From positions 1 through 64,000 of the forward strand of contig NZ_WPCC01000002.1 in assembly GCF_009741925.1 (NCBI RefSeq): a DNA stretch of 64,000 nucleotides, written 5' to 3'. Below, piece by piece: positions 36,127 to 63,294 of the stretch. Below the pieces are notes generated by a model that did not search any database, was not told where the DNA came from, and saw only the letters and a list, made by a program, of their open reading frames with translations. Origin of the DNA: Natronomonas sp. CBA1123 (GTDB taxonomy: Archaea > Halobacteriota > Halobacteria > Halobacteriales > Haloarculaceae). The translations under genes were made by a program, and so were the position numbers. How positions within the stretch are numbered: the first letter of the stretch is position 1; each line of letters begins with the position of its first letter.

Positions 36127-36130
36127 AACA

Positions 36131-39038: not shown

Positions 39039-39040
39039 AT

Positions 39041-40008: not shown

Positions 40009-40059
40009 CTATCCCGGTGCTCGGGGAGTAGTGATTTACAAGCATCGCTCTTCGGATTT

Positions 40060-40086
40060 ACTTGGTCTCGACCAAGTCTTTATTAC
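40060..40086 (+). promoter_or_regulatory. Operator palindrome and TATA of the second TGT operon
   Basis: ACTTGGTC-TC-GACCAAGT (40060-40077) is a perfect inverted repeat with eight-base arms. It is followed at once by a TATA-like CTTTATTACC (40077-40086). The ATG of the TGT-like gene at 40116 is about 30 bases further, so a bound regulator would block the promoter. Confidence 0.7.
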
Positions 40087-40115
40087 CCAGCCCAGCCAAG
40101 CGGAGCGCGTCGCAG

Positions 40116-41150: not shown

Positions 41151-41151
41151 T

Positions 41152-45269: not shown

Positions 45270-46135
45270 TCGACAACTACGATTACAGCAGCAGCAAGCC
45301 AGAGACGGACCTCGTGAACTACAACACGGTACGAGTACCCGAACTGCGGCTAATCTACCGGACGCTCGACAGCGTGGGGGGACACGCTAATGTCTCGACG
45401 CTTAGAGACACGATGACCCCCGAAGACGATGACCATCTCGACGAGTGTCTCAGGTATCTCAGGGCAGTCGACCTGGTCGACCGAAATGAGGATCGCGTGG
45501 TCGAACTTGCTAACGAGGAGGTGTTCCCGAATCTCTCGTTCGAGCCGCGGCTACTTCTCCACCTGAACCAACAGGACCATCCCCAGGACCACGTCACCGA
45601 AGCCCAGCGCGTCGCGTTCGCGAAGGCGCCGAAGACGCTCCGACGGGATCAACTGGAAGTTGAACTTGAGGGCGAACTGGACTACATCGCCTGGAACGAG
45701 ACAAAACTCAACGCTTGGTACCGATTGCTGCAGGGGATTGGTGTCCTTTCGTTCATCGACTCACGGGAACTGGTGCTGTCGCCGCGACCGAGACTACTGT
45801 ACGAACTCTTCGAGACGTTCCGCGACACGGAGAACTCAACCGACTTCGGCGAGGCGGTCGCGTGGATCGAGAAGCACTTCATGTCGGTTCTGACGACCCG
45901 TCCGGGGACCCCGCGGCTCCACAAGGGTGTCACCGACACGCTGCAGACGCTACTCGACGAGGAGTACGTCAGTGTCCGTGGGATGTCGGATGCTACAAGC
46001 GAGGTGGTGCTTCCATTGACCCACTCCAGGAACGAAGAGCCCGCCGTGACGGAGTTCGAACTGCACGGCTGGCCGACGAACCCGCCGGCGAGCAAGCGTT
46101 ACCCGCTGGACCAGTTCACGGAGGCCCATACATGA
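45266..46135 (+). CDS. Unknown protein with winged-helix region (DpdG-like position)
   Basis: The 289-residue protein has a winged-helix-like section (NVSTLRDTMTPEDDDHLDEC then LRYLRAVDLVDRNEDR, about residues 42-78) and further helical segments. The size, and the place just before a large ATPase, coiled-coil protein, helicase and PLD gene, recall bacterial dpdG. The protein itself was not identified by motif. Start and stop overlap the neighbours by four bases each. Confidence 0.65.
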   Translation: MIDNYDYSSSKPETDLVNYNTVRVPELRLIYRTLDSVGGHANVSTLRDTMTPEDDDHLDECLRYLRAVDLVDRNEDRVVELANEEVFPNLSFEPRLLLHLNQQDHPQDHVTEAQRVAFAKAPKTLRRDQLEVELEGELDYIAWNETKLNAWYRLLQGIGVLSFIDSRELVLSPRPRLLYELFETFRDTENSTDFGEAVAWIEKHFMSVLTTRPGTPRLHKGVTDTLQTLLDEEYVSVRGMSDATSEVVLPLTHSRNEEPAVTEFELHGWPTNPPASKRYPLDQFTEAHT

Positions 46136-49100
46136 CAGACTATCCCATCGACTGGACGGACGACACCGTCCGCCGGTACCTGACGGCAGAGGCACACCAG
46201 AAGTCCAAAGAGGAGTTCGAAAAGACCCACATCGACATCGACAAACTCCGGGCCGAGTGGCTGTTTCCTCACCCAACGAACGACGAGTTCGTCACTCAGG
46301 AGGAGTTCCGCGACGCTATCCTCAAATCAGACATCGAAGACGACAATCGGATTTTCATCCTACGGGGGGAGACAGGTAGCGGTAAGAGTCAGCTCTGCCA
46401 GTGGCTGGAGTACCAGATTGGCCAGAACCCTGGAGAGGGTGACGACGACACCCATATCGCGCTGCATGTATCCCGAAGCGAGACTCGCATCAAGGACATC
46501 GTCGATATCCTGACTGAACCGATCGAAATGGAGATTGATGTGCGGGACGTAGGGGGGCTCGTCCCGGAGAAGGTGGCAAACGCGATGCTCGCAAACCTCG
46601 ACGCGTACGAACCAATGCTCGAAGCGGTCTCCGAGGAGGAGATCCAGTCGCTAATCGCTGACCGCTCGGGGACGGACCTCCGAGGCATCCTTGAGGAGAA
46701 CATCCAGGCGTACATTGACGCCGTCCAGAGTGACGAGGAAGAGGACATCCCGGACCTTCTGACGGAGGCTGACTACCGAGAACTTTCGATGAACGCCTTT
46801 AACCGCGGGAAGGGAGGAGATACGATTTTCCCGGCACTCCAGAGCTTCATCGACGAAGAGCTTTCGACCAAACTCGGTGTCGGCGACTTCCAGCAGCGCC
46901 TCCGGGATATCTCCGAAGAGTACGTCGAGCAGGGGCTCCGACCGGTACTGATTTGTGAGGATCTCACCACGTTTAGTGTGCTGAAAGAGCAACTGCTCGA
47001 CCATATCTTCCAACTCGATAGCGGCCAGTACGACGTTGTACTCGGGTGGACGACTGGCTGGGAGAAGGAAAACATCGACACCGCACTGGGCGCGAGTGAG
47101 GACGCACAGACGTACATGAAGGACCGGTCTGAGGGCTACCTCAGCACCACCGACGAGACCGGCCAAGCGTACTTCCTCACGGACGACGTGACCGTGGAAC
47201 TGACTCGAAAGTACCTCTCAGTCATCCGTGATGAGTCCGATGTGGACCCCGGGATGGAGATTCCCGAAGCGGACTTCGACGGGCTCTACCCGTTCAACGC
47301 GGAGTTCGTCAAACGTGCTTACCGGAACCTCGTCCAAGATGGTAACGAGCGCCGAACACCGCGCCTATTGTTGATGCGAATCGTCCGGGAGTGTCTCACC
47401 TCCACGGTCCCGCCGTTTGAGGCCATCTCCGGCAACCCGTACGTCAAGCAGTTCCCTACCCCGATTGATCTCAGGTACCCATCTGCGGTCCAGTCGATTG
47501 CCAAGTGGTACGGCATCCCGACCGCGCAGGGGGACCTCCGCGTGCCTAAGAGCGTGTTCCGCCTATTCGACGTGTCTATCCCCGACGGAACTCTCGATGT
47601 GACGGACACGGACGTCGTCTTCCAAGGAAGCGGAGACACGCCGAATCCAACACTAACACTTCGACAACTCGACGGCCATATCGAACCCGGTGCCGAACTC
47701 ACGGTGCAAGCGTTATTGAACGACCGGCCGGAACCGGATGTCGAGATCGGTGTAGATGGGGGGCATGTCGGCTATACCGACGACAACGGGAAGGTCACGT
47801 TCACGCTACCCAACGAGGAGCGCGAGGTGGAACTCCGGGCCGAAAAGAACGATCTCACCGACTCGCTCACGCTTGCGGTTGGGACCGACTCGCTCACGCT
47901 AGTCGCGACTCCGAACCGGCCCAAGGAGGGGGAGACTGTCCAGCTCACCGCTCGCTTCAATGGCGAACCAACTCCAGGCGTAGCTATTGAACGTGACGGC
48001 GACGTGGTCGGTGAGACCGATGAGGGAGGTTCCCTCGGAATTAGCGCAGACAACCCACCGTCGATGACCTTCACCGCGAGTCACGGAGACGTAGACGACG
48101 AACTCACCGTCGATATCACTGGCGCCCGGACCTTCCCCGTTGAGGTGGATTACTCACCAGAGGACGTCGAGCAGTACCGTTTTGAGTACCAGCAGTGGGT
48201 CGCGAACGGCGACAAGTATGATAGTTCGAAGATGCTGAAGAACGGAGCCGCGGCCCTACTCGACGAGTGGTACGACCCGACTCGACTCGCGAATCCGAAC
48301 GGTCCGTCGACGGGGATGGATGGAATTTACTACACCCGGGGAACCCAGACGCCGGTCTCCCTTCAGGGGGTCGACGAGCGCCAGGGGATTAGTATCGATC
48401 TGCCGTTCGGCGCTGAGCACGACTCCGTTTACGAACCACTTTTCTGGCACGGTGTCAGCCAGGATGGCGAGCTACCCCACGAGAACCGGTACGAACTCAG
48501 CTACGACCACCTCCGGAACTGGGGTGACGACGCCGTCGCCGGCTTCAAACAGACAATGCGTGAGGATATTGAGGCCTGTCTGCCAGATGGCTGGACCGTC
48601 GAAGAGTTCATCGTTCTGTCGCAGTACCTGCTGGCGAATGCTGGGCGTGGGGAACTCGACCTCACGCGAGATCTTGTGTTCGAGGATTTCCAGACTCCAG
48701 ACGCGTACGACCAACCGATTACCAAGCGGTTCAATCCAACAGATCCGTACGGCGAGGCTTATAAGCAACTCACAAAGAGCAGTAGCATCCCTCGAAGGCT
48801 GGCGGAGGGATTCTTCAAACTGAAGTCGAACTTCGTCGACGCTGACCGTTTGAACGAGGCTTACGGAGCCGTCTCGGACAACCTATCGACCTACATCGAG
48901 GAGGCGATGGTCATCGACGCCGGGGATCTTCCGGACGCGTACAAGGTCGGCACCACTCGAACGAGGGCGAGCGAGAAACTGGCTCCACTCCTCCGGCGCA
49001 TCCAGCAGTACGCCCAAGAACTCGCTGGTCTGGGCCCAAGCGATGTGGATCACATCACCGAGGCCGTCACCAAGATCGACGACTGGTACGACGATTCCCA

Positions 49101-49509
49101 CTCCGTCGTTGACCTCCGCGAACTCTACGACGGTTTACTCGACATCGTCGGGGACCTCGATGTCAACATCCTTGACCGCTGGGAGCAACAGCAGACGCTG
49201 CTTGAGGAGGACTCCGAACGACTCGACTTAAAACGATTCGGGAATGACATCGAGAAATTCCGCGATCTCGAGGCACAGGACGGGCCAGAACTCGTCGCAC
49301 TGATGCACGAGTTCGAACGGAGCAAGGAGGAAGCTGACGAGTGGAAACTCTATGCTGCTATCGGCGAGATGATTGAGGCTGCTGGTGATGTCGAGGTCCC
49401 GGAAACTGATCAAGAGCTTGAGAACGCTGTCAGAGACTCAGAAGAGTTCAGGAACCTCGTAGAGGCAGGAGACGCGGCGCAGGGGGCCATCGGGGGTGAC
49501 CACGTATGA
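46132..49509 (+). CDS. Large ATPase with embedded Ig-like domains (DpdH-like)
   Basis: The 1125-residue protein starts MTDYPIDWTDDTVRRYL. Walker A is RGETGSGKSQLCQWLEYQIG (about residues 78-97), and a Walker B-like strand VLICEDLTTF lies near residue 272. Two Ig/Big-like repeats follow at about 503-670 (LTVQALLNDRPEPDVEIGVD, then LTLVATPNRPKEGETVQLTA), which is unusual in a cytoplasmic ATPase. The C-terminal 400 residues are helical. The order (small gene, large ATPase, coiled-coil, helicases, PLD) matches bacterial dpdG-H-I-J-K by layout. A homologue of its N-terminus begins at 63691. I chose the ATG at 46132, which overlaps the previous stop. Confidence 0.8.
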   Translation: MTDYPIDWTDDTVRRYLTAEAHQKSKEEFEKTHIDIDKLRAEWLFPHPTNDEFVTQEEFRDAILKSDIEDDNRIFILRGETGSGKSQLCQWLEYQIGQNPGEGDDDTHIALHVSRSETRIKDIVDILTEPIEMEIDVRDVGGLVPEKVANAMLANLDAYEPMLEAVSEEEIQSLIADRSGTDLRGILEENIQAYIDAVQSDEEEDIPDLLTEADYRELSMNAFNRGKGGDTIFPALQSFIDEELSTKLGVGDFQQRLRDISEEYVEQGLRPVLICEDLTTFSVLKEQLLDHIFQLDSGQYDVVLGWTTGWEKENIDTALGASEDAQTYMKDRSEGYLSTTDETGQAYFLTDDVTVELTRKYLSVIRDESDVDPGMEIPEADFDGLYPFNAEFVKRAYRNLVQDGNERRTPRLLLMRIVRECLTSTVPPFEAISGNPYVKQFPTPIDLRYPSAVQSIAKWYGIPTAQGDLRVPKSVFRLFDVSIPDGTLDVTDTDVVFQGSGDTPNPTLTLRQLDGHIEPGAELTVQALLNDRPEPDVEIGVDGGHVGYTDDNGKVTFTLPNEEREVELRAEKNDLTDSLTLAVGTDSLTLVATPNRPKEGETVQLTARFNGEPTPGVAIERDGDVVGETDEGGSLGISADNPPSMTFTASHGDVDDELTVDITGARTFPVEVDYSPEDVEQYRFEYQQWVANGDKYDSSKMLKNGAAALLDEWYDPTRLANPNGPSTGMDGIYYTRGTQTPVSLQGVDERQGISIDLPFGAEHDSVYEPLFWHGVSQDGELPHENRYELSYDHLRNWGDDAVAGFKQTMREDIEACLPDGWTVEEFIVLSQYLLANAGRGELDLTRDLVFEDFQTPDAYDQPITKRFNPTDPYGEAYKQLTKSSSIPRRLAEGFFKLKSNFVDADRLNEAYGAVSDNLSTYIEEAMVIDAGDLPDAYKVGTTRTRASEKLAPLLRRIQQYAQELAGLGPSDVDHITEAVTKIDDWYDDSHSVVDLRELYDGLLDIVGDLDVNILDRWEQQQTLLEEDSERLDLKRFGNDIEKFRDLEAQDGPELVALMHEFERSKEEADEWKLYAAIGEMIEAAGDVEVPETDQELENAVRDSEEFRNLVEAGDAAQGAIGGDHV

Positions 49510-50279
49510 GCGATTCGACACTCGAAAAAACAATCCAGAATCTGGAAACGAAAGCTGACCGGTACCAAGAAGCTACCAACTTCGAGGCGAAACTCACAGA
49601 GTATACCAGTAACGCATCGTCAGCCAAGAGCTCCGTTTACGGGCTGCAAAACCGTCTAGAGGAGATGGAGCGGCTCTACGCCATCTACTCAGAAGTTTTC
49701 ACACCCCGTAACGGACCGGACGACCCAGAGGACATCAAAGGGCTCGTTGAGGACGCCCGGGATCGAGCACGGCGAGTCCTTGATCGGACACCGGATGACT
49801 ACTGGGAACTCATTGACAGCGGCGAAATCAATGACTACGAGGGGAAGGTTCAGGGGGCTAAGAGCGATGTCGACGAAGCGCGCCAGAACCTTCGTGACGC
49901 ACTAAATCGACGGCAGAAGTACTGGCAGGACCGCGTCGAGACTGGTCGGACGGTCCTAACCCTGATGTCCGATACCGGCGATGCAGAGAGCCTGTTGGCC
50001 GATATCAACCAATTCGTCTCCAGCCAGATCTGGGACGACTCCAACAGCATCACATCCCTCGATTCCGAGTGGCAGGGCATCCAGCGCAAGCTAGAGAGCG
50101 GGACCGTGGCGGACTGGGACGAGTTCCGGAAGCAGCACGACCTGAGTCCTGACACGATCGACATACTCAAACGGCTCGCGCAGGGGAACCGTGTGTCATT
50201 CGACCAACTCGACAGCGTCGTCGTCGACGACATGCTCAGCGTCGACGATCTGCGGAACGCGCTCGAGGTGACACTCTGA
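49506..50279 (+). CDS. Coiled-coil protein (DpdI-like position)
   Basis: The 257-residue protein is mostly helical, with heptad stretches at about residues 1-60 (LEKTIQNLETKADRYQEA) and 100-150 (EGKVQGAKSDVDEARQNLRD), and a C-terminal part with DSVVVDDMLSVDDLRNALEV. It has no catalytic motif. It is overlapped by the ATPase gene and lies one base before the first giant helicase, so it is probably a structural or bridging subunit of the complex. Confidence 0.7.
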   Translation: MSDSTLEKTIQNLETKADRYQEATNFEAKLTEYTSNASSAKSSVYGLQNRLEEMERLYAIYSEVFTPRNGPDDPEDIKGLVEDARDRARRVLDRTPDDYWELIDSGEINDYEGKVQGAKSDVDEARQNLRDALNRRQKYWQDRVETGRTVLTLMSDTGDAESLLADINQFVSSQIWDDSNSITSLDSEWQGIQRKLESGTVADWDEFRKQHDLSPDTIDILKRLAQGNRVSFDQLDSVVVDDMLSVDDLRNALEVTL

Positions 50280-50280
50280 G

Positions 50281-53200
50281 ATGGAAGACCCCGCTCGCCG
50301 GGCGACCGACGCTGTTGACGCCTACAGGAACCACTTCATCGGGCGAGTGGGGCCAGCGGCCCGGAGCGTCGCCAACCGGCAGGCCCGCACGCCGACGGAG
50401 AACCAGAATCTGGTGAACATTCGTGGGCCGTACCTTCAGGCACTCGATATCCCGAACTGGAGCGACGAGTCTTGGGAGTCGTTCGCCTCACGTGTGGGAT
50501 TGAATCCGCTAATAAAGAAGGCGTTCTCAGACCTCGGCTTCAGGCGCCTCTACGATTTCCAGGAACGAAGCGTCGAGGCCATTAGCGAGGGCCACGATAC
50601 CGTCGTGACGGCAGCGACCGGGCGTGGGAAGACAGAGGCCTGGCTCCTCCCCATCCTAGACCGTATCCTCGAAAAGAAGCGCCGCGGCGAGGCCGACGGA
50701 ACAACGGCGACGCTAATTTATCCAACAAAAGCGCTCGCACAGGACCAGTTCAAGCGACTGGTACAGTACCTATACCAAATCAACGAGCAGTGGCCGTCGA
50801 ACCAACAGATTACTATCGGCATCTACGACGGCGACACGCCTACCAACGTCGGGTCGAAGGCACAGGGTTACCTCCAGTCCTCGTTCAAATACTTCGACTG
50901 TCCGGGGGCGAATGACGATCTCGAGAAGTGCCGGAACTGTGGCCAGGGCGTACACGTCCACCACGGCGGTCAGGCCTACGAACTTCGTCCGGAGAAGCGC
51001 CAGTGTACTGACGACGTGCCACTGGACTTCATCCGCTTGACCAAGAACGCCATCCTCACGGAAGGGGTAGACATCCTCCTGACGAACCCCGACACAATCA
51101 ACATGAAACTCGTGAATGTTAATGCCCCTGACGAGCACGAAGCCTTCGTCTACGACCCGGAATTCCTCGTCTTTGACGAGGTACACACCTACGACGGCCT
51201 GTTCGGGAGCTACACCGCCACGCTGACGAAGCGGTTACGGGCACTCCGGGCCGATCGGGACTGCGACCCGCTGCAGGTAATCGCGAGCAGCGCGACCGTA
51301 GAGAACGACGTGGAACTGTTCCGACGGATTAGCGGCGCTCGAGAGGTCGCGCACGTTGACGAGCAGCCACGAACGCTCAACCGGCCCGACGAGACGGCCG
51401 TTCCTCCGGCATTCGTCGAGACGACACTCTCCGAATCGGACTTCTTCGCGTTCGCACGGGGGCGCCGAACGCCTCCGCTGCTTGAGGGCATCGAGTTCGA
51501 CGTGGACGCCGAGACCTACGACGACGACCGGCTCCTCGATATGCTGGCAGACGAACTGTTCGACCATTTCACCACTGAGAAGGACGCCGGGGAACGTGAC
51601 TCAGTCGTCTCGCTGGTCCAGAAGGTCCACGGAGAACTTCGAGAGGAGCCAAGGCAGTACGACGCGTTCCGAGCTTGGCTAGCTGATGAGTTCGATCTCC
51701 CGACCGACGACGCGGACCGGCTACTGGATAACTTCGTCGCCCTCGGGACGTTCTCCGGCCTGCTTGAGAACCGGACGCACCTGTTCTCCTGGCCGGTTGA
51801 CGGATTCTACTCCTGTGCTGCCTGTGATGCGGTGTACTCGGCACCAAGGGAAACGTGTGCGGCCTGCGATTACGGGTTCGTCACCCGGAGCGCCCACTGT
51901 AGTCGATGTGACGACGAGGCACTAATTGCGTGGTACTGCCCAGCCTGCGAGCAACTGGAACCGTACGTGCCAAGCGAGGAAGGTGAGCACCAGTGGGACG
52001 ATAGTCACGCCTGTCAGCGGTGTCTGGTTGCGCGCGAAGAAGAAATCCAGAGCCTCCGCGTGACCTTCCAGCCCACGCTAGAATGTACGGCCTGCGAGAC
52101 ACGTAACACCCGGACAACAGCTGCGGATTGTCCGGATTGCACAACCGACATGGTCCACCTCACGCCGGATCAATACCAGTGCCCGAACCCCACGTGTGAG
52201 ACGACCCGCTCCTACGAATCCGACTGTCCCACCTGTGGGGACAATCAGCGACCCCTTACTGGGAACGGCCCCGTCGATTGTCCGGCCTGTGGGCGGTCGT
52301 ACGACAGTGCCCCAACCGACGGATGCGAATGTGGCCGACGCCTACTCCAGACACGGTTCGTTCCATGGGTCTGTCGAAACGACGAGTGCAACCGCGAGTT
52401 TTTCGACACTCCGCCGGACACCTGCCCCTGTGGGTCATACACGTTCGCCCGGGCGGGCCTGTTCGAGGTATTTACGGACACCTACTGTGAGGCCTGTGGG
52501 ACGAGTGCCGTTGAGGGCCCGGCCTGCGATTGCGAGGACGCCAAGCAACGGACTCGCGAAGGTGCTCACCGGGCGTACCAGACACTCCAACCGGACGGCG
52601 GCGTGAGGGCCGTTAGTAGTATCTCAGCGGTCGCTCCCTGCACTCATCAGGGGCTCAACTACAATCCAAACAATCGATACGACGAACTGATTCGGGGCCC
52701 GGGTAATCTGGCGGCAACGACCAGCCAGTATATGCTCCGCCGCGTCGCCGACGAGGAAGGATACGAGGCGGCGAAACTCCTCTCGTTCGCCGACTCGCAT
52801 CGTGACATGAAGGAATTGGACCGTGATTTCACTGAACCGGAGGTGGCGACAGTATTAGACCAGACACTAGTCGAGAGCCTTCGTGAGCATGGCCCCTGGA
52901 CGACAGCGGACACAGTAATCGAAGGGGCGCTCGCTCGACTCGACGCCCTCAGCGAGGAACTCTCGCCGCCACAGAACGTGCAGGGGCTGACGTTCGACCT
53001 GACGACAGAACTAGTCGATACAGCACGCCGACATATGGACCCCCGCGAGGCGATCCGGGACCGCCTCCGTCGACGGCTCTACCCGCACCCGTACAGTCAG
53101 CGCTACGGTGAGTTCGAGGGCGCACTAGCCGATGACGGCCTCGTCGACGTGCGGCTGACTCCGGAGACTCGCGACGCTCTTGGAGAAGATGAGCGCGCGG

Positions 53201-55848
53201 TCCTACGGGCGGTTATCGACCGCGGGGGCGGTGGGGCGATCGACGACATTTCTCCACCGAGTCCAGATGCGAGCGTTCAGGACCTTGTCGGGAGCCTCAA
53301 CGCGGACGGGGTATTGACCCTCGACAACGACTACGTGACTCTTGCGCCAGGGGCGCTGGAGGTAACGCTGGCCGGTGAGGACGATGGGCTCCGTTATCTG
53401 CCCAGGACGAGCCGCTTCGAGCAGACGCTCGAGGCGCAGTTCGGCGCAACCAGCGGCGACGGTGTCCCCTTCGAAACGACGCTGGCCGAGCAGGCCGACC
53501 CGACCCACCCGAGGTTCAGTTCACGGGCCTATCGGACGACTTACTCCCGGGCCCGCGTGCTGGTCAGCCAGGTCTACCACGGGCTAACTGACAAGAAAGA
53601 GCGACGGGAACTGGAATACCTGTTCCGTGAGGGGAACCACCCACATTTCCTCTCCTCAGGCCCGACAATGGAACTCGGGGTCGATATCGGAGAGCTCGAC
53701 GCACTCTTGCTGTACGGGACGCCACCTAACATGAACGCCTACCTCCAGCGAATCGGGCGAGCAGGTCGGAGTTCGAACGCCTCGCTCGTGCACTCTGTGA
53801 GTCAGCGCAACCCCATTGATTACTACTATTACGAGCAACCGAACGACCTGATGGCCGCCGACCCACAACCTGTCCCGCTCAAGGAGTACAACGAGGAGGT
53901 GCTCCGGGTCTCACTAACGTGGGGCGTCCTCGACTACGTCGCAGCCAACTTCGTGGTCCCCTGGGAAGTAGACGGGTACGGTCCCTACAAGTCGGTCTCT
54001 GGTGGTGACGAGTTCGACCGCCGACAGCCCACGACCGACGACGATGCCGCAAAGTTCACGCACGTCATGTCGGCCCGGACGAAGGAGCTCGGGCTGGAAT
54101 CGCGGAACTCGAAGTTAGCTGCCCTCGGGACGCTCGTCCACGACTACCGTCGTGAAATCAAAGGCCATCTCGAGACCTTACTTGACCACGGCTACTGCGA
54201 GGCCTGCAGTCGCAAGTACGACCACGACGATGTCGACGGGTCGTGTGATGAACCCGATTGCACAGGGGAGATTCGTAGTGCACAGGCGGACTTTGGCCAT
54301 CTCGCTGAAGAGGCTGTCAACGGGTTCGAGGAGCGATTTATTACCCAGTACGCTGCTTACCGTGACCGGCTCGACGACGAACTGGAGACGGTCCAGCGTC
54401 GTCTGAACAGCCTCCGACGGGATCGGCGCCGGGCATCGTCTACCGAGGAGGGACGCCAGATTGCAGCCGAACGGAGTGCCCTCGAGGAACGCAAGCAGGC
54501 GCTACAGGGCCGGCTCGACCGGATTGAGAGTATGGAATACCTCGACTTCCTCCGAGAATCACGGCAGAGCCGCTACGCATTCAACATGCGGTCAGTCACC
54601 AATAACGTCGGTCTGACACTAGTCGACGAGGGCGAGGATGGCTACGAGTCCCGGAGCGCTGGCGACGACGACGGTCGGTCGATGCGAATGGCGATTAGCG
54701 AACTCCATCCCGGCGCTGCCTACCTCGATCAGGGTGACGTGTACGTCGTCTCTCGTCTCCGGACCGATGACTTCGCCTCGTCGGAACTCCGCGAGCACGT
54801 CCGCGGGAGCGGGGTCGACGAGTTGGCTGGTGAGTACATCTGTCAGGCGTGTGGGGCGGCGACCACAGACCCGAACGCGGCCTGTGACTGTGGTAAGGAG
54901 GCAGGGTGGAAGCGTCGACGCCTCGTTGTACCGGAGTCAGTTCGAGCTCACCGTTCGGACCTCCGGATGACTGCGGAGGGCGACCCTGCCCGAGCGGTGT
55001 ACGGGGAAGAGTCAGGGACAATCCAGAACACCTATGCCGAGCGCCAGACAGACGTCCTGGAGTTCGAAGCCAGACGCACGCACGAGTTTACCGGGCCAGA
55101 CGGTGACCAACTCGGTCAGGTTACGTACGGCGACATCGACGTTCTCCTACACACTGACAGTTACCGGGCGAAGTACAAGTCCGGCGAGATGGATGCCGAA
55201 GAGACGTCGTTCAGAATCTGTGGTGCTGACGACTGTACTGGAATCGTCTACGAGAGTGAGGACGAGCAACTCCGCTGCAGCGCCGATGCCGATCATCAAC
55301 CCAATGGCGACGACGGCTTCGAACTGGTTCGCCTCGGCTACCGTTACGGGACCGAGGGTATCCGAGTTGATCTCGCGGACACGGCCCAGGCCCACACGCT
55401 TGTCCACGGGTTCCGGGTAGCGCTCCAATACCTCGGCGGTGTGAGTATCCGGGAACTCTCGGAGGTGGTCCATGGCGACGGCGTGGTCGACCTTTTCGAC
55501 GCACAGGAGGGTGGTGCGGGAGTCACCCGCCTCCTGTTCGAGGCCGGGCCCGGGGGCCAAGACACGCTCCGACAGGCGATCGAACTCCTCCAGAAACACT
55601 TCCAGTGTGACTGTGAGGACGGCTGTCCGCTGTGTCTCTACCAGTACGGCTGCGACACCCACAACCGGGGCAGTACGTTCGACCGCGAGGGCCTGTTCGA
55701 CCGGCTCGACACGGCAGAGGCGGGCGAAAATCCCGTTGTCGGGGATGGCGGGATAGCCTCCGAAACAGGCGTCGAGCAGAATGAGTCCACGGGCGACACC
55801 AGCAACGGCGAAGAAACGACAACCAACACCACCGACATCGACACATGA
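50281..55848 (+). CDS. Giant zinc-rich DEAD/DEAH helicase with DUF1998 domain (first copy)
   Basis: The 1855-residue superfamily-2 helicase has Walker A in AATGRGKTEAWLLPIL (about residues 110-125), a DEVH box in VFDEVHTYDG (about 296-305) and SSATVEN (about 338). After about 170 more residues a block of some 12 CxxC zinc knuckles fills residues 510-760. RecA2 motifs follow: MELGVDIGELDALLLYGTP (about 1130) and QRIGRAGR (about 1155). A coiled coil at about 1360-1420 and the DUF1998 end with GCPLCLYQYGC (about 1782) complete it. Relatives are DrmA of DISARM, DpdJ and DruE of Druantia. It probably unwinds or moves along DNA during restriction. Confidence 0.9.
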   Translation: MEDPARRATDAVDAYRNHFIGRVGPAARSVANRQARTPTENQNLVNIRGPYLQALDIPNWSDESWESFASRVGLNPLIKKAFSDLGFRRLYDFQERSVEAISEGHDTVVTAATGRGKTEAWLLPILDRILEKKRRGEADGTTATLIYPTKALAQDQFKRLVQYLYQINEQWPSNQQITIGIYDGDTPTNVGSKAQGYLQSSFKYFDCPGANDDLEKCRNCGQGVHVHHGGQAYELRPEKRQCTDDVPLDFIRLTKNAILTEGVDILLTNPDTINMKLVNVNAPDEHEAFVYDPEFLVFDEVHTYDGLFGSYTATLTKRLRALRADRDCDPLQVIASSATVENDVELFRRISGAREVAHVDEQPRTLNRPDETAVPPAFVETTLSESDFFAFARGRRTPPLLEGIEFDVDAETYDDDRLLDMLADELFDHFTTEKDAGERDSVVSLVQKVHGELREEPRQYDAFRAWLADEFDLPTDDADRLLDNFVALGTFSGLLENRTHLFSWPVDGFYSCAACDAVYSAPRETCAACDYGFVTRSAHCSRCDDEALIAWYCPACEQLEPYVPSEEGEHQWDDSHACQRCLVAREEEIQSLRVTFQPTLECTACETRNTRTTAADCPDCTTDMVHLTPDQYQCPNPTCETTRSYESDCPTCGDNQRPLTGNGPVDCPACGRSYDSAPTDGCECGRRLLQTRFVPWVCRNDECNREFFDTPPDTCPCGSYTFARAGLFEVFTDTYCEACGTSAVEGPACDCEDAKQRTREGAHRAYQTLQPDGGVRAVSSISAVAPCTHQGLNYNPNNRYDELIRGPGNLAATTSQYMLRRVADEEGYEAAKLLSFADSHRDMKELDRDFTEPEVATVLDQTLVESLREHGPWTTADTVIEGALARLDALSEELSPPQNVQGLTFDLTTELVDTARRHMDPREAIRDRLRRRLYPHPYSQRYGEFEGALADDGLVDVRLTPETRDALGEDERAVLRAVIDRGGGGAIDDISPPSPDASVQDLVGSLNADGVLTLDNDYVTLAPGALEVTLAGEDDGLRYLPRTSRFEQTLEAQFGATSGDGVPFETTLAEQADPTHPRFSSRAYRTTYSRARVLVSQVYHGLTDKKERRELEYLFREGNHPHFLSSGPTMELGVDIGELDALLLYGTPPNMNAYLQRIGRAGRSSNASLVHSVSQRNPIDYYYYEQPNDLMAADPQPVPLKEYNEEVLRVSLTWGVLDYVAANFVVPWEVDGYGPYKSVSGGDEFDRRQPTTDDDAAKFTHVMSARTKELGLESRNSKLAALGTLVHDYRREIKGHLETLLDHGYCEACSRKYDHDDVDGSCDEPDCTGEIRSAQADFGHLAEEAVNGFEERFITQYAAYRDRLDDELETVQRRLNSLRRDRRRASSTEEGRQIAAERSALEERKQALQGRLDRIESMEYLDFLRESRQSRYAFNMRSVTNNVGLTLVDEGEDGYESRSAGDDDGRSMRMAISELHPGAAYLDQGDVYVVSRLRTDDFASSELREHVRGSGVDELAGEYICQACGAATTDPNAACDCGKEAGWKRRRLVVPESVRAHRSDLRMTAEGDPARAVYGEESGTIQNTYAERQTDVLEFEARRTHEFTGPDGDQLGQVTYGDIDVLLHTDSYRAKYKSGEMDAEETSFRICGADDCTGIVYESEDEQLRCSADADHQPNGDDGFELVRLGYRYGTEGIRVDLADTAQAHTLVHGFRVALQYLGGVSIRELSEVVHGDGVVDLFDAQEGGAGVTRLLFEAGPGGQDTLRQAIELLQKHFQCDCEDGCPLCLYQYGCDTHNRGSTFDREGLFDRLDTAEAGENPVVGDGGIASETGVEQNESTGDTSNGEETTTNTTDIDT

Positions 55849-58800
55849 GTTCACATCTTGACACCATCGACCTCGCGGAGTTGACCAAACGCTCTTACGC
55901 GGAACACTATGTTGCGGCTGGCAAACCACGGGTGCTCCGCGATGTCATCGATCGCTACGAGGAGACCGACCCGGGGTCGTCGCTTGACGAGGCCGTCACA
56001 GAATTCACGCGGACGCGGGGGCCGTATCTCCAGGCGCTTGACCTACCGCGACGGGGTCCCGACTGGGAGTCGTTCGCTGACGACGTTGGCCTCCATGAGG
56101 ATGTGATGCGGACGTTCCGCGCTGCCGGGTTCGAGTACCTCTACGAGTTCCAAGCTGAAACAATCCGCTCAGTAATTGAGGGTGACCATACACTCGTTAC
56201 TGCCGGAACCGGTCGGGGGAAGACCGAGAGCTGGCTAATCCCGATTCTTCAGTATATTACGGAGGCCAAGGCTGGGGAACACCCTGACCACCCACCCCAG
56301 AGCGTCAAGTGTGTCCTGACGTATCCAACGAAAGCGCTCGCCCAGGACCAGTTGAAGCGTCTCATCGAGTACTTATACGAGCTCAATCGGAACCGGACGG
56401 GGGCCGACCGAATCACGATTGGCATCTTCGACGGTGACACGCCGAACAACGACGCCAGCGAGTACGAATATCTCAAAACGGCCTATCAGTTCTTCGAGTG
56501 CCCGTGTGAGCACTGTGATGCCTCACTAACCGTCGAACGAACCGAAGATGAGCGGTTCCGTGTCGACCATAACGCTCCCAAGGCGCCGGAGATCGACCTC
56601 GACTTCATCCGACTCACTCGTGACGAGGTCGTCGAGGAGGAGGTCGACATCCTCCTGACCAACCCGGACACGATTAACTACCGACTATTCAACGTGAACC
56701 AGGCTGATGAACAGGCTGTCTTCGTCGAGGAACCCCGATTCATCGTGTTCGATGAGATTCACGAGTACGCCGAGCTGTTCGGAGCCTTTACCGCGACGCT
56801 GATGCGTCGGTATATCCGTGCCCGGCAGGCGCTGCGCGGTCATGAGACGCTCGACGACGACGACCTGCAGGTGGTCGGCGCGAGCGCGACCGTCGCGAAT
56901 CGACGGGCGATTTTCAATCGGGTCCTCCCGTTCACCGACCCGGAAACCGCAGTCGTCACGGAGGACCCACAGACGCTCGACGCGCCCACTCCATCGGCGG
57001 TTCCCGACGTGTTCAGGACGGAGAAACTGGACGTACCGGCGTTCATCGAGGCGCTGGGCGACGGAAACGATCCTGGACCAGTCGGCCAGTTCCTCAGAGA
57101 GTTCGTTGACATCGATCTGCCACCCGATACTGATGCCGAAACCGTCCGGACCCTAATCCAGGAGAGCCTCTACGAACGGTTGTTGAGCGACAGTGGCGAC
57201 GACCTCGATATCATCAGGGCACTCTACGCGACTCTTTACGATGATGCCCAGACGCCGGCAGAGTTGACCGAGACCATTGAGGACGCGCTCGCGGTCGACG
57301 CCGATACTGCTGAGACAGTCCGTGAGAACTTCGTTGCAATCGGCCGGTTAGCCGGCGTCCTCGAAAGCCGAGTTCATCTGTTCTCGTGGCCGATAGACGG
57401 CTACTATACCTGCCTGAACTGCGCGACGGTGTACGGAACGCCACAGAGCCAGTGTCAGTCGTGCGATCACCACTTCGTCACCAAATTCGCCTACTGTAGC
57501 CACTGTGGCGAGGAGGCGCTCGAATCCTGGTTCTGCCCGGCCTGTGAGCGGCTCGAACCGCTAACTGTTACCTCCGAGCAGGGCCAGTTTGAGTACTTCA
57601 ATACACAGGTTTGCCGGTGTGACGCGGGCGCGGAGAGCGAGACAGAGATGATTCGGACGCTGTGGCGACCATTCTACACTTGCAGCGAGTGTGGCGACCG
57701 CCAGCAACTCGACCGCGTCCGAGAGTGTTCAACCTGCAATACTGGTGCGCCGATGACACTAACAGTCGATCGGGAAGCCTACGAGTGTACGAACCCAACT
57801 TGTGACGGCCGAGAGCAGGCGACGCGGGCACACGAGTGCCAATCCTGCTCGCATGAGGCGCTCGACCCACTCGCCGAGGACACTCTCTACTGTGTCGAGT
57901 GCGACGAAACCTACCCAGAAACGGACGGCGAGCGATGCACCTGCGGCGGCGCACTCCTGCCAAAGCGGTTTCTCGGTTGGCAGTGTAGCGGGACCGACTG
58001 CGACGAGGTCTACCTCGGTGAACCGCCGAACACGTGTGACTGTGGTAAGCGTCGGTTCGCCCGGACGGCGCTGTTCGACCTCAATCGGGTTGAAGAATGC
58101 AACTCCTGCGGCCGTGAGCTGTTCCCTGGGAAGGAGTGCTTCTGTGATGACCCCGATACGAACACCCGAGTCACCGGGTTCAAGAATTTCCAGATGGTCG
58201 ACGAGCGCGGACAGGTCCGTAATGCGAGTGATTTCCCTGGTGCGGTCCCCTGCTATGACAAGGGACGCTCGTACTCCAAGACCCACCGATATGAGTCGAT
58301 GCTTCGAGGGCCCGGGAACGCCGCAGTCACCTCCTCACAGTACCAGTTGCGAGCGATCACGAACCCGGACAATCCCGAGACGTTCCAGGAGGCGAAACTC
58401 CTCTCCTTCGCCGATAGTCAGTCCGATATGAAGGAACTGGCCCGGGACTTCGAGGAACCGGAGGAGGATCTGTTCTTCACACAGCAGGTCATCCACGCAA
58501 TCGCCGACGCAGCTGAGGGATGGACCACATTAGACGTGGCCGCCGATCGCGTCTGGACGGCTGTCCAGGAATATGAAACCCTTCTAGAGACGGATGCTGA
58601 CACGCAACAGTCGCCGCTTGAACGCCGACTAACCCGCTACGATGAGTCGTTCGAGCAGTTCGTCAGAGCTGAAGTCGTCGCCCGCGTCCTCGCGGGGCAG
58701 TACAACAACCGACGACGGACCCCTCACCTCGCAAACCGGGGGCTAGTTGATGTCAGACTAGCCGTCGATGTCGACACACTAGACGAGACAAAGCGCGAAC

Positions 58801-61349
58801 TGCTCGCCGCGTTCCACGCACAGGGGACTCGCTACGTTTCGACGCTCGCTGAGGAAATCGAGGGCGCCGGCCACCACGTTGAGGAACTCGTCGACATGGG
58901 TGTTCTGGCGAAGGAACAGTCCGACGGCAGCGTGGTTGTCTCGCTCAGCCCCGACGTAGTCGAACTCACCCTCACGGATGCAACGACGCCCGTTCAGTAC
59001 GACCCGGAAGCCGAGCGGTTCTACACGACATTCGACCGGACCTGCCGCAACGTCGATGTCGAACTCGTCCCGTTCGAGGCCGACTACCAGGACCGGGCAA
59101 CGTTCACCCACCCGCACTTTGACAGGGTGGCCTACCGAATCGACGCCTCTGACCCGCTGATGCTGCTGAGCGACTCCTACTTCGGGCAGACCGAGCGGTC
59201 GGACCGGCGTCGACTCGAATACCAGTTTCGCGAGGGGCGACACCCGAACTTCCTCTCATCGGGTCCAGCCATGGAGGTGGGCGTCGATATCGGGGACCTG
59301 GACTCATTACTCCTCTATGGGACACCTCCGAACACGAACTCCTACCTGCAACGAGTCGGCCGAGCAGGGCGTGACTCGGGGGCCTCGATCGTGCACTCTG
59401 TGAGTCAGCGTAACCCCATCGACTACTACTACTTCCGTCAACCCGGCGAGTTAATCCAGTCCGCTGCGCAGCCGGTCCCTCTCAACGAGGCCAACCGCGA
59501 GGTGCTCCACCGGTCACTAATCTGGGCAGTCCTTGACGCGGCGGCGTCGACTAGGTGGATTCCATGGCGTCGCGAGGAGAGCGCTATGGACGACCTGTTC
59601 GTCTACGATGACGACGTAGACATCCATTCACGGACAGATATACAGGAACGTCCCAACGACATCGTGTCGTTCAGTACACTCCTCGCCAACGCCTGCCAAC
59701 AACTCCAACCCGGCGCTGAGATATCGCCACTGGAAGCGCTTCGGGACCTCGTAACGGACGATACGGAGCGCGCAGCGATTGAGAGGTGGCTCGAGGACCT
59801 CCTCCGATACAGCGCCTGTGAGACGTGTGGCCGCAAACATGACGCCGGCTACGAGGGCCCCTGTGCGGACCCTGAGTGTAGCGGTACCACCGTCTCGATG
59901 CTCGACAGGCACCGGGATCTCGTCGACGTGGCCATCGATGCGTTCGAGGCGGAGTTGGTTGACCGGTTTGTCGATTTCGAGGATGAACTGTTCGAGGAAC
60001 TCGACCACGTCGAAGACCGCATCAGCGACCTCCGACGTAGCTCTCGGAGTCGTCGCCGCGGACGTCAGAATGAGGGCGACGGGACGAGTGAGCGAGAGGA
60101 ACTGGATCGGCTCCGCTCCCGGCGGACCCGACTAGACGAGTTCCTCACGCGACTCGGTCAAATGGATTTTGGCGAGTTCCTCACGCGGCACAGCGAAGCG
60201 GCGTTCAGTCTCCGGTCTGTTGGGGCAACCGTCAGCTACGAACTCATCGGTGAAGGGTTCGAACCCGCTACCGAGAGCACCCTCGAGCGAGACCGCGGAA
60301 TCGCCCTCTCAGAACTCCATCCAGGTGCCGCCTACCTCCACAACGACGACGAGACCTACGTTGTGACCGAGGTCGTCGAAGACGCCCACGAAACCCAGGC
60401 GATCAAGGAGTCGGTTGCCGACGCGGCAATCTGTCGGCAGTGCGGTCAGGAGTACGATATTGACACCGCACGGTGTGAGAACTGTGACCGGCGGCTCGAG
60501 CAACTCGAGACAATCGTCCCGCGGCGCGTTCGTGCTTACCAGGCCTCCCTCCCAATCGACCGCCGTGCTGACGGTAGTGCACTCACCCCGTCGGTAATCT
60601 ACCGATCTCAAGGCCCCGAGGTACAGAGCACCTACGCACCTGTTGAAACAGAGGCCGTCACGTTCGATTCCACCGAGGGTCGCCGATTCGCTATCGTGAC
60701 CGAAGCCGGCGAGCGGGTCGGGGTGATCGAACACGGGTCTCTCCGAATGCGATCCTCGGCAACCCAGTTCTTCGCCACCTACACGGGCGGAGGGTCGGAC
60801 TACCTGCCGACCGTTTTTGAGGTCTGTGGCCGGAACAACTGCTCGGGTGTCATTGCTCGGACCGACGAAACCGCCTACTGCCTGCAAAATCCCGAGCACG
60901 ACACCAGCGACTCGACTGCAGTCCGCTTGGCGACTGAATTCGAGACGTCCGGCGTCCGCCTCGCGATGGCCTCCGAGGAGTTAGAGCACACCCTGGCGCA
61001 TGGCCTTCGTGCAGCACTTCAGTACATCGGTGGTGTTAGTGTCCGGAAGGTTCCAGAGACTATTGAGGAGGACGGGACATTCATCTACGACGGCGACGAA
61101 GGGGGGAGCGGCATCAGCGTTCTCCTGACCGATGGCGTGGATGGTGAGAACCCTAGCAACTTCCAGCGTGCGACCGATATTATTGCGGAGACATACGAGT
61201 GCGACTGCGAGGCTGGGTGCCCATTCTGTCTCTATCAGTACGGATGTACCAACCGCAACGACCCGGATAGTTTCGCAAAGGGCGAGGTAGTGTCACTACT
61301 CGACGCCGGCCTGCGTCTCGAACCGCTCGCGGAGGGTGAGGATGCGTAA
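55845..61349 (+). CDS. Giant zinc-rich DEAD/DEAH helicase with DUF1998 domain (second copy)
   Basis: The 1834-residue paralogue overlaps the first copy by four bases and shares its whole plan: GPYLQALDLPRRG near residue 56, Walker A in TGRGKTESWLIPIL (about 122-135), a DEIH box in VFDEIHEYAE (about 300-309), zinc knuckles (about 520-765), RecA2 with MEVGVDIGDLDSLLLYGTP (about 1142) and QRVGRAGR (about 1168), and DUF1998 with GCPFCLYQYGC (about 1790). The two are clearly diverged (loops and N-terminal arms differ), so this is an old duplication rather than a recent one. They may act as a heterodimer. Confidence 0.9.
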   Translation: MSSHLDTIDLAELTKRSYAEHYVAAGKPRVLRDVIDRYEETDPGSSLDEAVTEFTRTRGPYLQALDLPRRGPDWESFADDVGLHEDVMRTFRAAGFEYLYEFQAETIRSVIEGDHTLVTAGTGRGKTESWLIPILQYITEAKAGEHPDHPPQSVKCVLTYPTKALAQDQLKRLIEYLYELNRNRTGADRITIGIFDGDTPNNDASEYEYLKTAYQFFECPCEHCDASLTVERTEDERFRVDHNAPKAPEIDLDFIRLTRDEVVEEEVDILLTNPDTINYRLFNVNQADEQAVFVEEPRFIVFDEIHEYAELFGAFTATLMRRYIRARQALRGHETLDDDDLQVVGASATVANRRAIFNRVLPFTDPETAVVTEDPQTLDAPTPSAVPDVFRTEKLDVPAFIEALGDGNDPGPVGQFLREFVDIDLPPDTDAETVRTLIQESLYERLLSDSGDDLDIIRALYATLYDDAQTPAELTETIEDALAVDADTAETVRENFVAIGRLAGVLESRVHLFSWPIDGYYTCLNCATVYGTPQSQCQSCDHHFVTKFAYCSHCGEEALESWFCPACERLEPLTVTSEQGQFEYFNTQVCRCDAGAESETEMIRTLWRPFYTCSECGDRQQLDRVRECSTCNTGAPMTLTVDREAYECTNPTCDGREQATRAHECQSCSHEALDPLAEDTLYCVECDETYPETDGERCTCGGALLPKRFLGWQCSGTDCDEVYLGEPPNTCDCGKRRFARTALFDLNRVEECNSCGRELFPGKECFCDDPDTNTRVTGFKNFQMVDERGQVRNASDFPGAVPCYDKGRSYSKTHRYESMLRGPGNAAVTSSQYQLRAITNPDNPETFQEAKLLSFADSQSDMKELARDFEEPEEDLFFTQQVIHAIADAAEGWTTLDVAADRVWTAVQEYETLLETDADTQQSPLERRLTRYDESFEQFVRAEVVARVLAGQYNNRRRTPHLANRGLVDVRLAVDVDTLDETKRELLAAFHAQGTRYVSTLAEEIEGAGHHVEELVDMGVLAKEQSDGSVVVSLSPDVVELTLTDATTPVQYDPEAERFYTTFDRTCRNVDVELVPFEADYQDRATFTHPHFDRVAYRIDASDPLMLLSDSYFGQTERSDRRRLEYQFREGRHPNFLSSGPAMEVGVDIGDLDSLLLYGTPPNTNSYLQRVGRAGRDSGASIVHSVSQRNPIDYYYFRQPGELIQSAAQPVPLNEANREVLHRSLIWAVLDAAASTRWIPWRREESAMDDLFVYDDDVDIHSRTDIQERPNDIVSFSTLLANACQQLQPGAEISPLEALRDLVTDDTERAAIERWLEDLLRYSACETCGRKHDAGYEGPCADPECSGTTVSMLDRHRDLVDVAIDAFEAELVDRFVDFEDELFEELDHVEDRISDLRRSSRSRRRGRQNEGDGTSEREELDRLRSRRTRLDEFLTRLGQMDFGEFLTRHSEAAFSLRSVGATVSYELIGEGFEPATESTLERDRGIALSELHPGAAYLHNDDETYVVTEVVEDAHETQAIKESVADAAICRQCGQEYDIDTARCENCDRRLEQLETIVPRRVRAYQASLPIDRRADGSALTPSVIYRSQGPEVQSTYAPVETEAVTFDSTEGRRFAIVTEAGERVGVIEHGSLRMRSSATQFFATYTGGGSDYLPTVFEVCGRNNCSGVIARTDETAYCLQNPEHDTSDSTAVRLATEFETSGVRLAMASEELEHTLAHGLRAALQYIGGVSVRKVPETIEEDGTFIYDGDEGGSGISVLLTDGVDGENPSNFQRATDIIAETYECDCEAGCPFCLYQYGCTNRNDPDSFAKGEVVSLLDAGLRLEPLAEGEDA

Positions 61350-63294
61350 CGACTTGCTACAGGACCTCGCCGTAACGCTGGCGATCGATAATCCGGAGAG
61401 GCTGTGGGGCGTCTCACCTGAGAGTACGTACGCCGCGCTCGACGCAGTAGCAACCGACAAGTCGCTGTTAGATGCCCTTGAGGGGTACCACACGCTCGCG
61501 CTGGCGGCCACAAACCAAGAGCGTGAGCGTGACATACTCGTCGATTTCCACCGGGAATTCCTCAGAGCTGTGAACCTCGTTGCGGACGGTGAGGTGACGG
61601 AGATCGGTGCGCTTGTCCTTCGGAGCAACGATTCACGGGCCCTGCTGCAAACGCTCGTCGCCACCCATTCCGAGGCCACCAGACGCGTCCTGCGTGACTG
61701 TCTAGCGATCGAGGATATTGTTCCTCGCCGGGAGTATGAGACGCTTCTTCGGGATAATCACGAAATAGAGGTTCTGACACCGGTGTTTGGATCGTTCAAT
61801 TTACTCCGCATGTTCCCCGACGGCGTCGAACTGTCAGTCGAGGCAGTCGAGCGGAGCCTCAAAGCCCACGATATTGGTTCCGAGGAGGCAGCTCGGGCTA
61901 GCCTCCACCGGAGCCTCCTGCGCTCGTTTTCTGGGTTCGATGCCGAAGTCGCCGAGGAGATTACGGCGCAGCATCTCGGCCGACGAGGCAGGGGAATGAC
62001 TGAACAGGCGATTGTCGCGACGCTCGGGGATGCAGACGCGGAGAGATTTGATTACGAAGCCGTACGTACTGCCATAGACGAGGCGCGTGCGGAGTACGAC
62101 CGACTCGCGGCCCGGAGCGTCGACTTGCTCACGGCAGGTGGTGGGGACGTGACCGTAACCTCCGGCGAGGAAATCACGGTTGAGGATGTTCGAGAGCACG
62201 CCGAGTCGGACACGGCCCCGGCCATCATCGACCTTTTCGCGATGGTAGTAGCTCAGCGACTGGACCGGGTCCACGCCCGGTACGTCGCGTCACAACTCGA
62301 CATGTCGCTCTATCCAGCATTCAATGCGATTAATTCGGTGCCCGGTGTCGAGTGTGAACTGCAGGACGAGGTGCTGGTTCTCGACCAAGTGCCAACAGTC
62401 GTCGGCGGCACCAGCCACTACGACCGATACGTTGAGTTCCTCCTCGACGAGCGTGAGACATTCGCATCCCGTCGCGAGACGCTCGCGGAGTCGAGCATCA
62501 CCCTTGAAGGAGTGGATGTGGACGCACACCTCGTGACGCGGATCAGCGAAATCGAGAGCCGACAGGTCGCGCCGACGTACTTCGCGTTCACGCTGATTGA
62601 CCCGGACGCCCTCGGTCAGGAAGTCATGGAAGAGTACGTCGGTGACTCCCGTGGCCTCGGGCGGGAGCGAGCTCGTCTTCGACGGTGGCACGGGTCGCGC
62701 CCGAGCGACTTGCGTTCGTATACTGCGATGACGGATCGCCTGTTCAGTCGGGGTCTCGAATCCAACCTAGATCAGCAGGTGCTGCGTGTCATGACGCCGT
62801 ACGACGACGATACGTTCGCCGAGTACGCGGCGCAACTCCGCCGCCTACTGGAGGCTGGGCACGAACTGCGATTCCTGACACGGCACACCAAGGAACCCTG
62901 GGAGTGGAAACGACTCCGGGATAACCTGTTGAAACCCCTCGACGCTAACCGTGAGCAGGTGTCTATCAGGACCTACTCGCGGTTCAAACAGCACCAGAGG
63001 ATTACCCCCGAAACAGACCGGAGCCAAGTCAGCGAGGTCGGAATCCACGGGAAGTTGCATATCATCGGCGGACCACACGAGGGCGCGGCCCTCCTCGGAT
63101 CGGCCAACTTCATGGAGAATAGCTACCACTGGAACCCAGAGTGTGGTGTCTACACCGAGCGGACCGCATTCGTCAGGGCCGCCACCGAGTTCTTCGACGT
63201 CGTCTGGGACCTCGCCGAGGCTGATCAACTCTCCCTAAATCGACTGCAGGAAATTCCGGACCGAGAGTTCATCCCGAGCTACTACACATCCTAA
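61342..63294 (+). CDS. Phospholipase-D-type protein (DpdK/DrmC-like)
   Basis: The 650-residue protein has one HxK-type PLD motif near its C-terminus: GIHGKLHIIGGPHEGAALL then GSANFMENSYHWNPECG (about residues 573-610), preceded by VLRVMTPYDDDTFAEYAAQL (about 478-497) of the same fold. The N-terminal 450 residues are helical and unlike known PLDs. A PLD of this type needs to dimerise to build a full active site, and it would serve as the nuclease of the system, as DrmC does in DISARM. The start at 61342 overlaps the second helicase stop by eight bases. Confidence 0.85.
   Translation: MRNDLLQDLAVTLAIDNPERLWGVSPESTYAALDAVATDKSLLDALEGYHTLALAATNQERERDILVDFHREFLRAVNLVADGEVTEIGALVLRSNDSRALLQTLVATHSEATRRVLRDCLAIEDIVPRREYETLLRDNHEIEVLTPVFGSFNLLRMFPDGVELSVEAVERSLKAHDIGSEEAARASLHRSLLRSFSGFDAEVAEEITAQHLGRRGRGMTEQAIVATLGDADAERFDYEAVRTAIDEARAEYDRLAARSVDLLTAGGGDVTVTSGEEITVEDVREHAESDTAPAIIDLFAMVVAQRLDRVHARYVASQLDMSLYPAFNAINSVPGVECELQDEVLVLDQVPTVVGGTSHYDRYVEFLLDERETFASRRETLAESSITLEGVDVDAHLVTRISEIESRQVAPTYFAFTLIDPDALGQEVMEEYVGDSRGLGRERARLRRWHGSRPSDLRSYTAMTDRLFSRGLESNLDQQVLRVMTPYDDDTFAEYAAQLRRLLEAGHELRFLTRHTKEPWEWKRLRDNLLKPLDANREQVSIRTYSRFKQHQRITPETDRSQVSEVGIHGKLHIIGGPHEGAALLGSANFMENSYHWNPECGVYTERTAFVRAATEFFDVVWDLAEADQLSLNRLQEIPDREFIPSYYTS

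What the first reader, a model, noticed from the sequence alone, without database searches (positions are those of the whole stretch)
50281..61349. Tandem giant zinc-finger DUF1998 helicases
Two paralogues of 1855 and 1834 residues, overlapping by four bases, share Walker A, DEVH/DEIH, about 12 zinc knuckles inserted between the RecA domains, and a four-Cys DUF1998 end. Known systems (DISARM, Dpd, Druantia) carry one such helicase, so an obligate pair would be a new architecture.
Basis: seen in the sequence. Interest (0 to 1): 0.8.

Follow-up and report, generated by a model that had tools for sequence, protein, structure and literature searches.

The report
Paired helicases of haloarchaeal BRIGADE defence
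Two giant, duplicated DNA helicases sit side by side in a salt-loving archaeon's antiviral gene cluster that probably marks its own DNA with unusual guanine bases; the cluster belongs to a recently described class (BRIGADE type II), and comparing it with relatives suggests the first helicase is the constant part while the second, with its nuclease, is an exchangeable arm.

Summary
In detail: two intact ~1,850-residue SF2/YprA (DUF1998-type) helicases, 36% identical, overlap by ATGA at 50281-61349. They are not a new architecture. The cassette (preQ0 genes, DpdA, DpdC-like, second TGT, BrxD-like ATPase, DpdH-like ATPase, two helicases, PLD nuclease) matches BRIGADE type II, described in a September 2025 preprint as usually carrying two YprA helicases and confined to halophilic archaea. 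What I add: HelA and HelB are anciently diverged sister clades (35-39% identity in every locus, not 'nearly identical'), co-inherited almost perfectly (distance correlation 0.99, 21 loci), all motifs intact in both. The pair is not obligate: HelB was not seen without HelA, but six HelA-bearing genomes lack HelB, and exactly those lack the PLD nuclease genome-wide. Five of the six carry a split Dpd-branch helicase with PD-(D/E)XK nuclease and/or a UvrD-PD-(D/E)XK protein instead. A sister class has one helicase plus PLD. The modification genes form a second module with an independent history. Best model: an ancestral self-pairing helicase became a HelA-HelB heteromer; HelA is the constant translocase, HelB-PLD the exchangeable destructive arm against unmarked DNA. 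Heteromerisation and activity are inferred.

The parts
50281..55848 (+). HelA: YprA-family SF2 helicase, 1855 aa, the constant helicase
55845..61349 (+). HelB: paralogous YprA-family helicase, 1834 aa, ATGA overlap with HelA; found only beside HelA and with a PLD nuclease
61336..63294 (+). PLD-family nuclease (PLDc_2 just below cut-off; conserved HxK...GSAN), DpdK/DrmC-like effector; overlaps the end of HelB
49506..50279 (+). coiled-coil-rich protein in the position of DpdI (no detectable homology)
46132..49509 (+). DpdH-like P-loop ATPase, 1125 aa
45266..46135 (+). orfY, 289 aa, position of DpdG (weak profile similarity, 55% probability)
44406..45269 (+). orfX, restriction-module protein of unknown function, conserved in HelA loci (upstream start at 44352 possible)
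43397..44050 (-). Csa3-like CARF-wHTH regulator, divergent from the restriction operon
   Evidence: Csa3_N PF22662
42063..43223 (+). BrxC/BrxD-type ATPase, travels with the modification module
41152..42066 (+). conserved 304-aa partner of the BrxD-like ATPase (winged-helix-like by eye; no Pfam hit), modification module
40131..41150 (+). second TGT-family transglycosylase (TgtA-like, below the archaeosine equivalog cut-off); canonical TgtA lies on another contig
39041..39757 (+). DpdC-like / DUF6884 protein; fused to DpdA (~970 aa) in many relatives
36840..39038 (+). DpdA, DNA preQ0 transglycosylase (264 bits against cut-off 200), with an insertion
31893..32354 (-). QueD (6-pyruvoyl tetrahydropterin synthase family)
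31117..31893 (-). QueE-like radical SAM protein
   Evidence: relatives annotated QueE
30518..31120 (-). GTP cyclohydrolase I (FolE)
29833..30534 (-). QueC, preQ0 synthase

Best explanation
This is a BRIGADE type II restriction-modification-like defence system of a haloarchaeon. QueC/FolE/QueE/QueD supply preQ0. DpdA, with the DpdC-like protein, the second TGT and the BrxD-like ATPase with its partner, installs a 7-deazaguanine mark in host DNA. A separate restriction module (orfX, orfY, DpdH-like ATPase, coiled-coil protein, HelA, HelB, PLD nuclease) attacks unmarked DNA. HelA and HelB arose by one duplication of a helicase that probably acted as a homodimer, as its relative DruE does, and now work as a heteromer. 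HelA with the DpdH-like ATPase is the constant loading/translocating part; HelB delivers DNA to the PLD nuclease and is the exchangeable arm. Shown here: gene content, motif integrity, sister-clade relationship, co-inheritance, HelB-PLD linkage, alternative helicase-nucleases in most HelA-only genomes, two-module structure. Inferred: heterodimer, division of labour, the chemical mark, antiviral activity. Identity as BRIGADE type II is about 0.95 likely; the heteromer and division of labour about 0.45.
For: Gene content and families; match to the published BRIGADE description. Tree: HelA clade 0.97 / UFBoot 97, HelB clade 1.0 / 100, A+B 1.0 / 99, with single-helicase+PLD systems as sister. HelA and HelB distances correlate at r=0.99 over 21 loci with equal rates, and 50 Cys are shared; motifs intact in both. 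PLD is present in 13/13 genomes with HelA+HelB (one of them degraded), 3/3 single-helicase class C genomes and 0/6 HelA-only genomes, genome-wide. The split Dpd-branch helicase (MrfA Zn-binding subunit plus PD-(D/E)XK nuclease) is in 3/6 HelA-only genomes and 0/16 paired or class C genomes; UvrD-PD-(D/E)XK in other HelA-only loci. DruE is a homodimer whose ssDNA can reach the neighbouring protomer.
Against: No direct evidence of contact between HelA and HelB; full-length pair modelling was not possible. The HelA-only genome G191 has a lone HelA far from its DpdA and no replacement arm found near it, so HelA may have uses outside the system or be a relic. UvrD-PD-(D/E)XK proteins are common, so their role as replacements rests on neighbourhood only. 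orfY-DpdG similarity is weak and the coiled-coil protein has no detectable link to DpdI. No experiment on any BRIGADE system is known to me.
Confidence: 0.6

Rival explanations
1. Two parallel, non-interacting restriction machines: HelA and HelB are independent homodimers with different DNA structures or virus targets, sharing only the mark and the accessory proteins.
For: HelA persists without HelB in several lineages; both keep every catalytic motif; class C shows one helicase with PLD can suffice.
Against: HelB is not seen without HelA, lies directly after it, overlaps it by ATGA in several loci, and the two share history and rate (r=0.99).
Confidence: 0.3
2. HelB is mainly a dosage or decoy-resistant backup of HelA: redundancy against viral inhibitors rather than a distinct role.
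For: Shared architecture and Cys positions.
Against: 62 positions are fixed differently in the two clades, and HelB presence is tied to PLD, not to HelA alone; equal rates argue against relaxed redundancy.
Confidence: 0.1
3. The cluster serves DNA repair or replication rather than defence, marking DNA for another purpose.
For: The closest solved relative by sequence is the repair helicase MrfA.
Against: Tree placement with ARMADA/Druantia-type helicases rather than the DpdJ root (repair YprA sequences were not in the tree), best PADLOC hits to DruE, PLD nuclease, patchy distribution (12/146 family genomes, 14/146 in an even draw from the order), plasmid location in several species, Dpd-type content.
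Confidence: 0.05

Closest known systems
BRIGADE type II (Bell et al. 2025 preprint, PMC12458937)
   Same: Halophilic archaea; 7-deazaguanine gene cluster with Dpd homologues; two ARMADA-like YprA helicases; PLD nuclease in a separate gene; zinc insert in RecA1, coiled coil and zinc module after RecA2
   Different: The preprint calls the two helicases nearly identical; here they are 35-39% identical, in two old sister clades. It does not, in the main text, report HelB-PLD linkage or separate histories of the modification and restriction modules (its supplementary figure could not be read)
Dpd (dpdA-dpdK, bacteria)
   Same: DpdA, DpdC-like, DpdH-like ATPase, helicase plus PLD, order G-H-I-J-K paralleled by orfY-DpdH-CC-HelA/HelB-PLD
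   Different: No DpdB, DpdD or DpdE match, DpdF only to the HelB motif region; two zinc-rich ARMADA-like helicases in place of DpdJ; BrxD-like ATPase and second TGT in the modification module
Druantia (DruE)
   Same: Long zinc-rich YprA helicase; best PADLOC hits are DruE models; DruE structures are the second-best PDB sequence match
   Different: DruE of type III carries its PLD domains fused at the C-terminus and is a homodimer; no Dpd genes in Druantia
ARMADA
   Same: Helicase family and domain layout
   Different: Needs BrxHII-like helicase, PglX methyltransferase and a fused Vsr nuclease; none matched here

Membership tests
BRIGADE type II | Two ARMADA-like YprA helicases in one cassette | tested here: met
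   both group with ARMADA/Druantia rather than DpdJ
[quoted passage not shown]
   QueC, FolE, QueE, QueD, DpdA
BRIGADE type II | PLD or PD-(D/E)XK nuclease nearby, not fused to the helicase | tested here: met
   separate 652-aa PLD protein; helicases show no nuclease domain
BRIGADE type II | Zinc module inside RecA1, zinc module plus coiled coil after RecA2, two zinc inserts in the OB region | tested here: met
   conserved Cys at HelA 207-242, 1306-1327, 1521-1537, 1647-1666; coiled-coil-like stretch about 1344-1420 read from the sequence
BRIGADE type II | BrxA-like helical domain after RecA1 | tested here: inconclusive
   helical domain at HelB 388-503 in the right place; BrxA resemblance not tested separately
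BRIGADE type II | Halophilic archaea only | tested here: met
   full-length relatives all haloarchaeal
BRIGADE type II | The two helicases 'nearly identical' (wording of the preprint) | tested here: not met
   36% here, 35-39% in all paired loci. Taken as loose wording (the architectures are nearly identical), not as a defining feature
Dpd (canonical) | DpdJ-type helicase without the 4-Cys cluster | tested here: not met
   DpdJ model 103-111 bits against cut-off 800; C-terminal Cys cluster present
Dpd (canonical) | DpdB, DpdD, DpdE, DpdF | tested here: not met
   no DpdB, DpdD or DpdE match in the window; DpdF matches only HelB's motif region
Dpd (canonical) | DpdA transglycosylase | tested here: met
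   264.5 bits, cut-off 200
ARMADA | BrxHII-like helicase, PglX methyltransferase, fused Vsr nuclease | tested here: not met
DISARM | Helicase and DUF1998 module in separate genes | tested here: not met
   single polypeptides
Any of these | Protects against viruses or plasmids | not testable with these tools
   experiment needed

The most novel reading that the evidence does not exclude
BRIGADE runs on a two-helicase rule: a constant HelA that must pair with a second helicase-nuclease, either its own duplicate HelB with a PLD nuclease or a distantly related split Dpd-branch helicase (or a UvrD protein) with a PD-(D/E)XK nuclease, while the DNA-marking module is swapped freely between them. This would be a homodimer-to-heterodimer transition with exchangeable effector arms reading one shared mark.
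Probability: 0.4. Interest if true: 0.68.

Novelty: new member of a known kind. Interest (0 to 1): 0.47.

Why it matters
BRIGADE has been named but, as far as I could find, not tested. The survey gives concrete handles: which helicase is constant, which is tied to the nuclease, what replaces it, and that marking and cutting genes evolve as separate units. That makes it possible to ask how a giant defence helicase chooses a nuclease partner, and whether different cutting machines read the same modified base.

Tried and rejected
A sequence-only single-protein scan of genome contigs found nothing; the two-paralogue alignment worked. Large class/order searches failed on the server and were replaced by smaller draws. 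Viral contigs held only one short 33% match, so no evidence that viruses carry the pair. One-copy inactivation was tested and rejected. Profile links of orfX to any Dpd protein tried, and of the coiled-coil protein to DpdI, failed. The PLD structure model was confident only in its N-terminal half and gave only weak matches (best TrmBL2, E 4e-3). The HelB core model was moderate (pLDDT 69); its best matches are MrfA structures, but its RecA2 end was unreliable. Fragment G138 (MAG contig start, frameshifted) was left out of counts.

Full report
Observation. The window holds two long + strand ORFs, 50281-55848 (HelA, 1855 aa) and 55845-61349 (HelB, 1834 aa), overlapping as ATGA. They align end to end at 36% identity and both keep the SF2 motifs. 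Across 18 HelA and 16 HelB or class C homologues the motifs GRGKTE, DExH, SAT, G(V/I/M)DIG and QRxGRAGR are intact. Fifty cysteines are conserved in both clades: three to four inside RecA1, 31 between the RecA domains, four after RecA2 before a coiled-coil-like stretch, seven in the OB region and five at the C-terminus. Pfam's MZB model did not fire, but the nearest solved protein by sequence is MrfA/YprA followed by DruE, and the top Foldseek matches of a model of HelB 1-1200 are MrfA.

Surroundings. Downstream, a 652-aa PLD-family protein (61336-63294) overlaps HelB; its HxK...GSAN signature is conserved. Upstream lie a coiled-coil protein, a DpdH-like ATPase, orfY and orfX, then a divergent Csa3-type CARF regulator. 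Further upstream are a BrxD-like ATPase and its partner, a second TGT, a DpdC-like DUF6884 protein and a bona fide DpdA, then QueD, QueE, FolE and QueC on the other strand. Canonical TgtA is elsewhere in the genome, so the second TGT is extra. Gene order orfY-DpdH-CC-HelA/HelB-PLD parallels dpdG-H-I-J-K of Enterobacter, although only DpdH, the helicase and the PLD fold are supported by similarity.

Identity. A September 2025 preprint (PMC12458937) defines BRIGADE: haloarchaeal hybrids of Dpd and ARMADA, usually with two YprA helicases; in type II both are ARMADA-like. The window meets each tested feature except 'nearly identical' copies: identity is 36% here and 35-39% in all 14 paired loci compared. 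Canonical Dpd, ARMADA and DISARM membership fail.

Is the pair obligate? Loci from named haloarchaea (read) give 13 with HelA-HelB-PLD in fixed order, three with HelA only, one cut off, and two with a single distant helicase plus PLD (class C). Whole genomes give 13 genomes with the pair (one degraded, G251), six HelA-only, three class C. HelB without HelA was not seen, apart from an unusable contig-edge fragment. Trees place HelA and HelB as sister clades (FastTree 0.97 and 1.0; UFBoot 97 and 100) with class C outside (97), so the duplication is old and HelA-only lineages, at least two of them nested among paired ones (G021, G248), have probably lost HelB. Distances within HelA and HelB match at r=0.99 over 21 paired loci with slope 0.99.

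What goes with HelB? A genome-wide search found the PLD protein in all 13 paired genomes and all three class C genomes, and in none of the six HelA-only genomes. HelA-only genomes instead carry, in three of six (plus named loci L032 and L115, read), a separate Dpd-branch helicase split into a ~900-aa core and a ~700-aa MrfA-Zn-binding subunit next to a PD-(D/E)XK nuclease (the nuclease was seen in L115 and G248, and L032's contig ends inside the helicase); none of 16 paired or class C genomes has that subunit. That set resembles BRIGADE type I. UvrD-PD-(D/E)XK fusions sit beside HelA in further loci. G191 has a lone HelA and is unexplained. These counts are not corrected for relatedness, but the HelA-only state appears in about four places in the tree.

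Two modules. Pairwise distances of HelA correlate with HelB 0.997, PLD 0.95, DpdH 0.99 and orfX 0.98; DpdA, TGT2, BrxD and its partner correlate with each other at 0.91-0.93; across the two sets the values are 0.19-0.32, DpdA-HelA 0.62. The window shows it plainly: its modification genes are 71-94% identical to those of G002, whose restriction genes are of the other type (HelA 45%), while its helicases are 71-73% identical to those of Natronorubrum L109, whose DpdA is 59%. So the BrxD-like ATPase belongs with marking, perhaps in place of the missing DpdB (inference), and different cutting modules probably read the same mark (inference).

Mechanism. DruE, the solved relative, is a homodimer whose single-stranded DNA can extend to the next protomer (PMC13192584). 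A single ancestral helicase with PLD (class C-like) duplicating into HelA and HelB fits a homodimer-to-heterodimer change. HelA's clade-specific RecA1 residues agree with class C more often than HelB's do (8 against 2), so HelB looks the more derived there. Shown: genes, motifs, history, linkage. Inferred: heteromer, roles, mark, defence.

Noticed in passing
34093-36135 (-): GmrSD-type (type IV, modified-DNA-targeting) restriction enzyme between the preQ0 genes and dpdA; its coexistence with a base-modification system is intriguing.
   Followed up: no
63691-64764 of the contig (L104:692-1765); starts in the window near 63691: A 357-aa P-loop ATPase whose start resembles the DpdH-like ATPase, just after the PLD gene.
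   Followed up: partly
36840-43223 against 44406-63294: Modification and restriction genes have separate histories; the modification genes match genome G002 (Halapricum) at 71-94%.
   Followed up: yes
43397-44050 (-): Csa3-like CARF regulator sits divergently at most paired loci, hinting at cyclic-oligonucleotide control of a non-CRISPR defence operon.
   Followed up: partly
25197-27395 and 28536-29102: Pentapeptide-repeat protein and a vWA-domain ORF near the cassette.
   Followed up: no
L110:32044-32703: A queuosine-precursor transporter is encoded next to the cassette in Natronococcus sp. CG52, which has no preQ0 genes annotated in the fetched stretch.
   Followed up: no
G191:C2:1314638-1319983: Lone HelA far from its genome's DpdA, without HelB, PLD or the DpdH operon nearby.
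   Followed up: no
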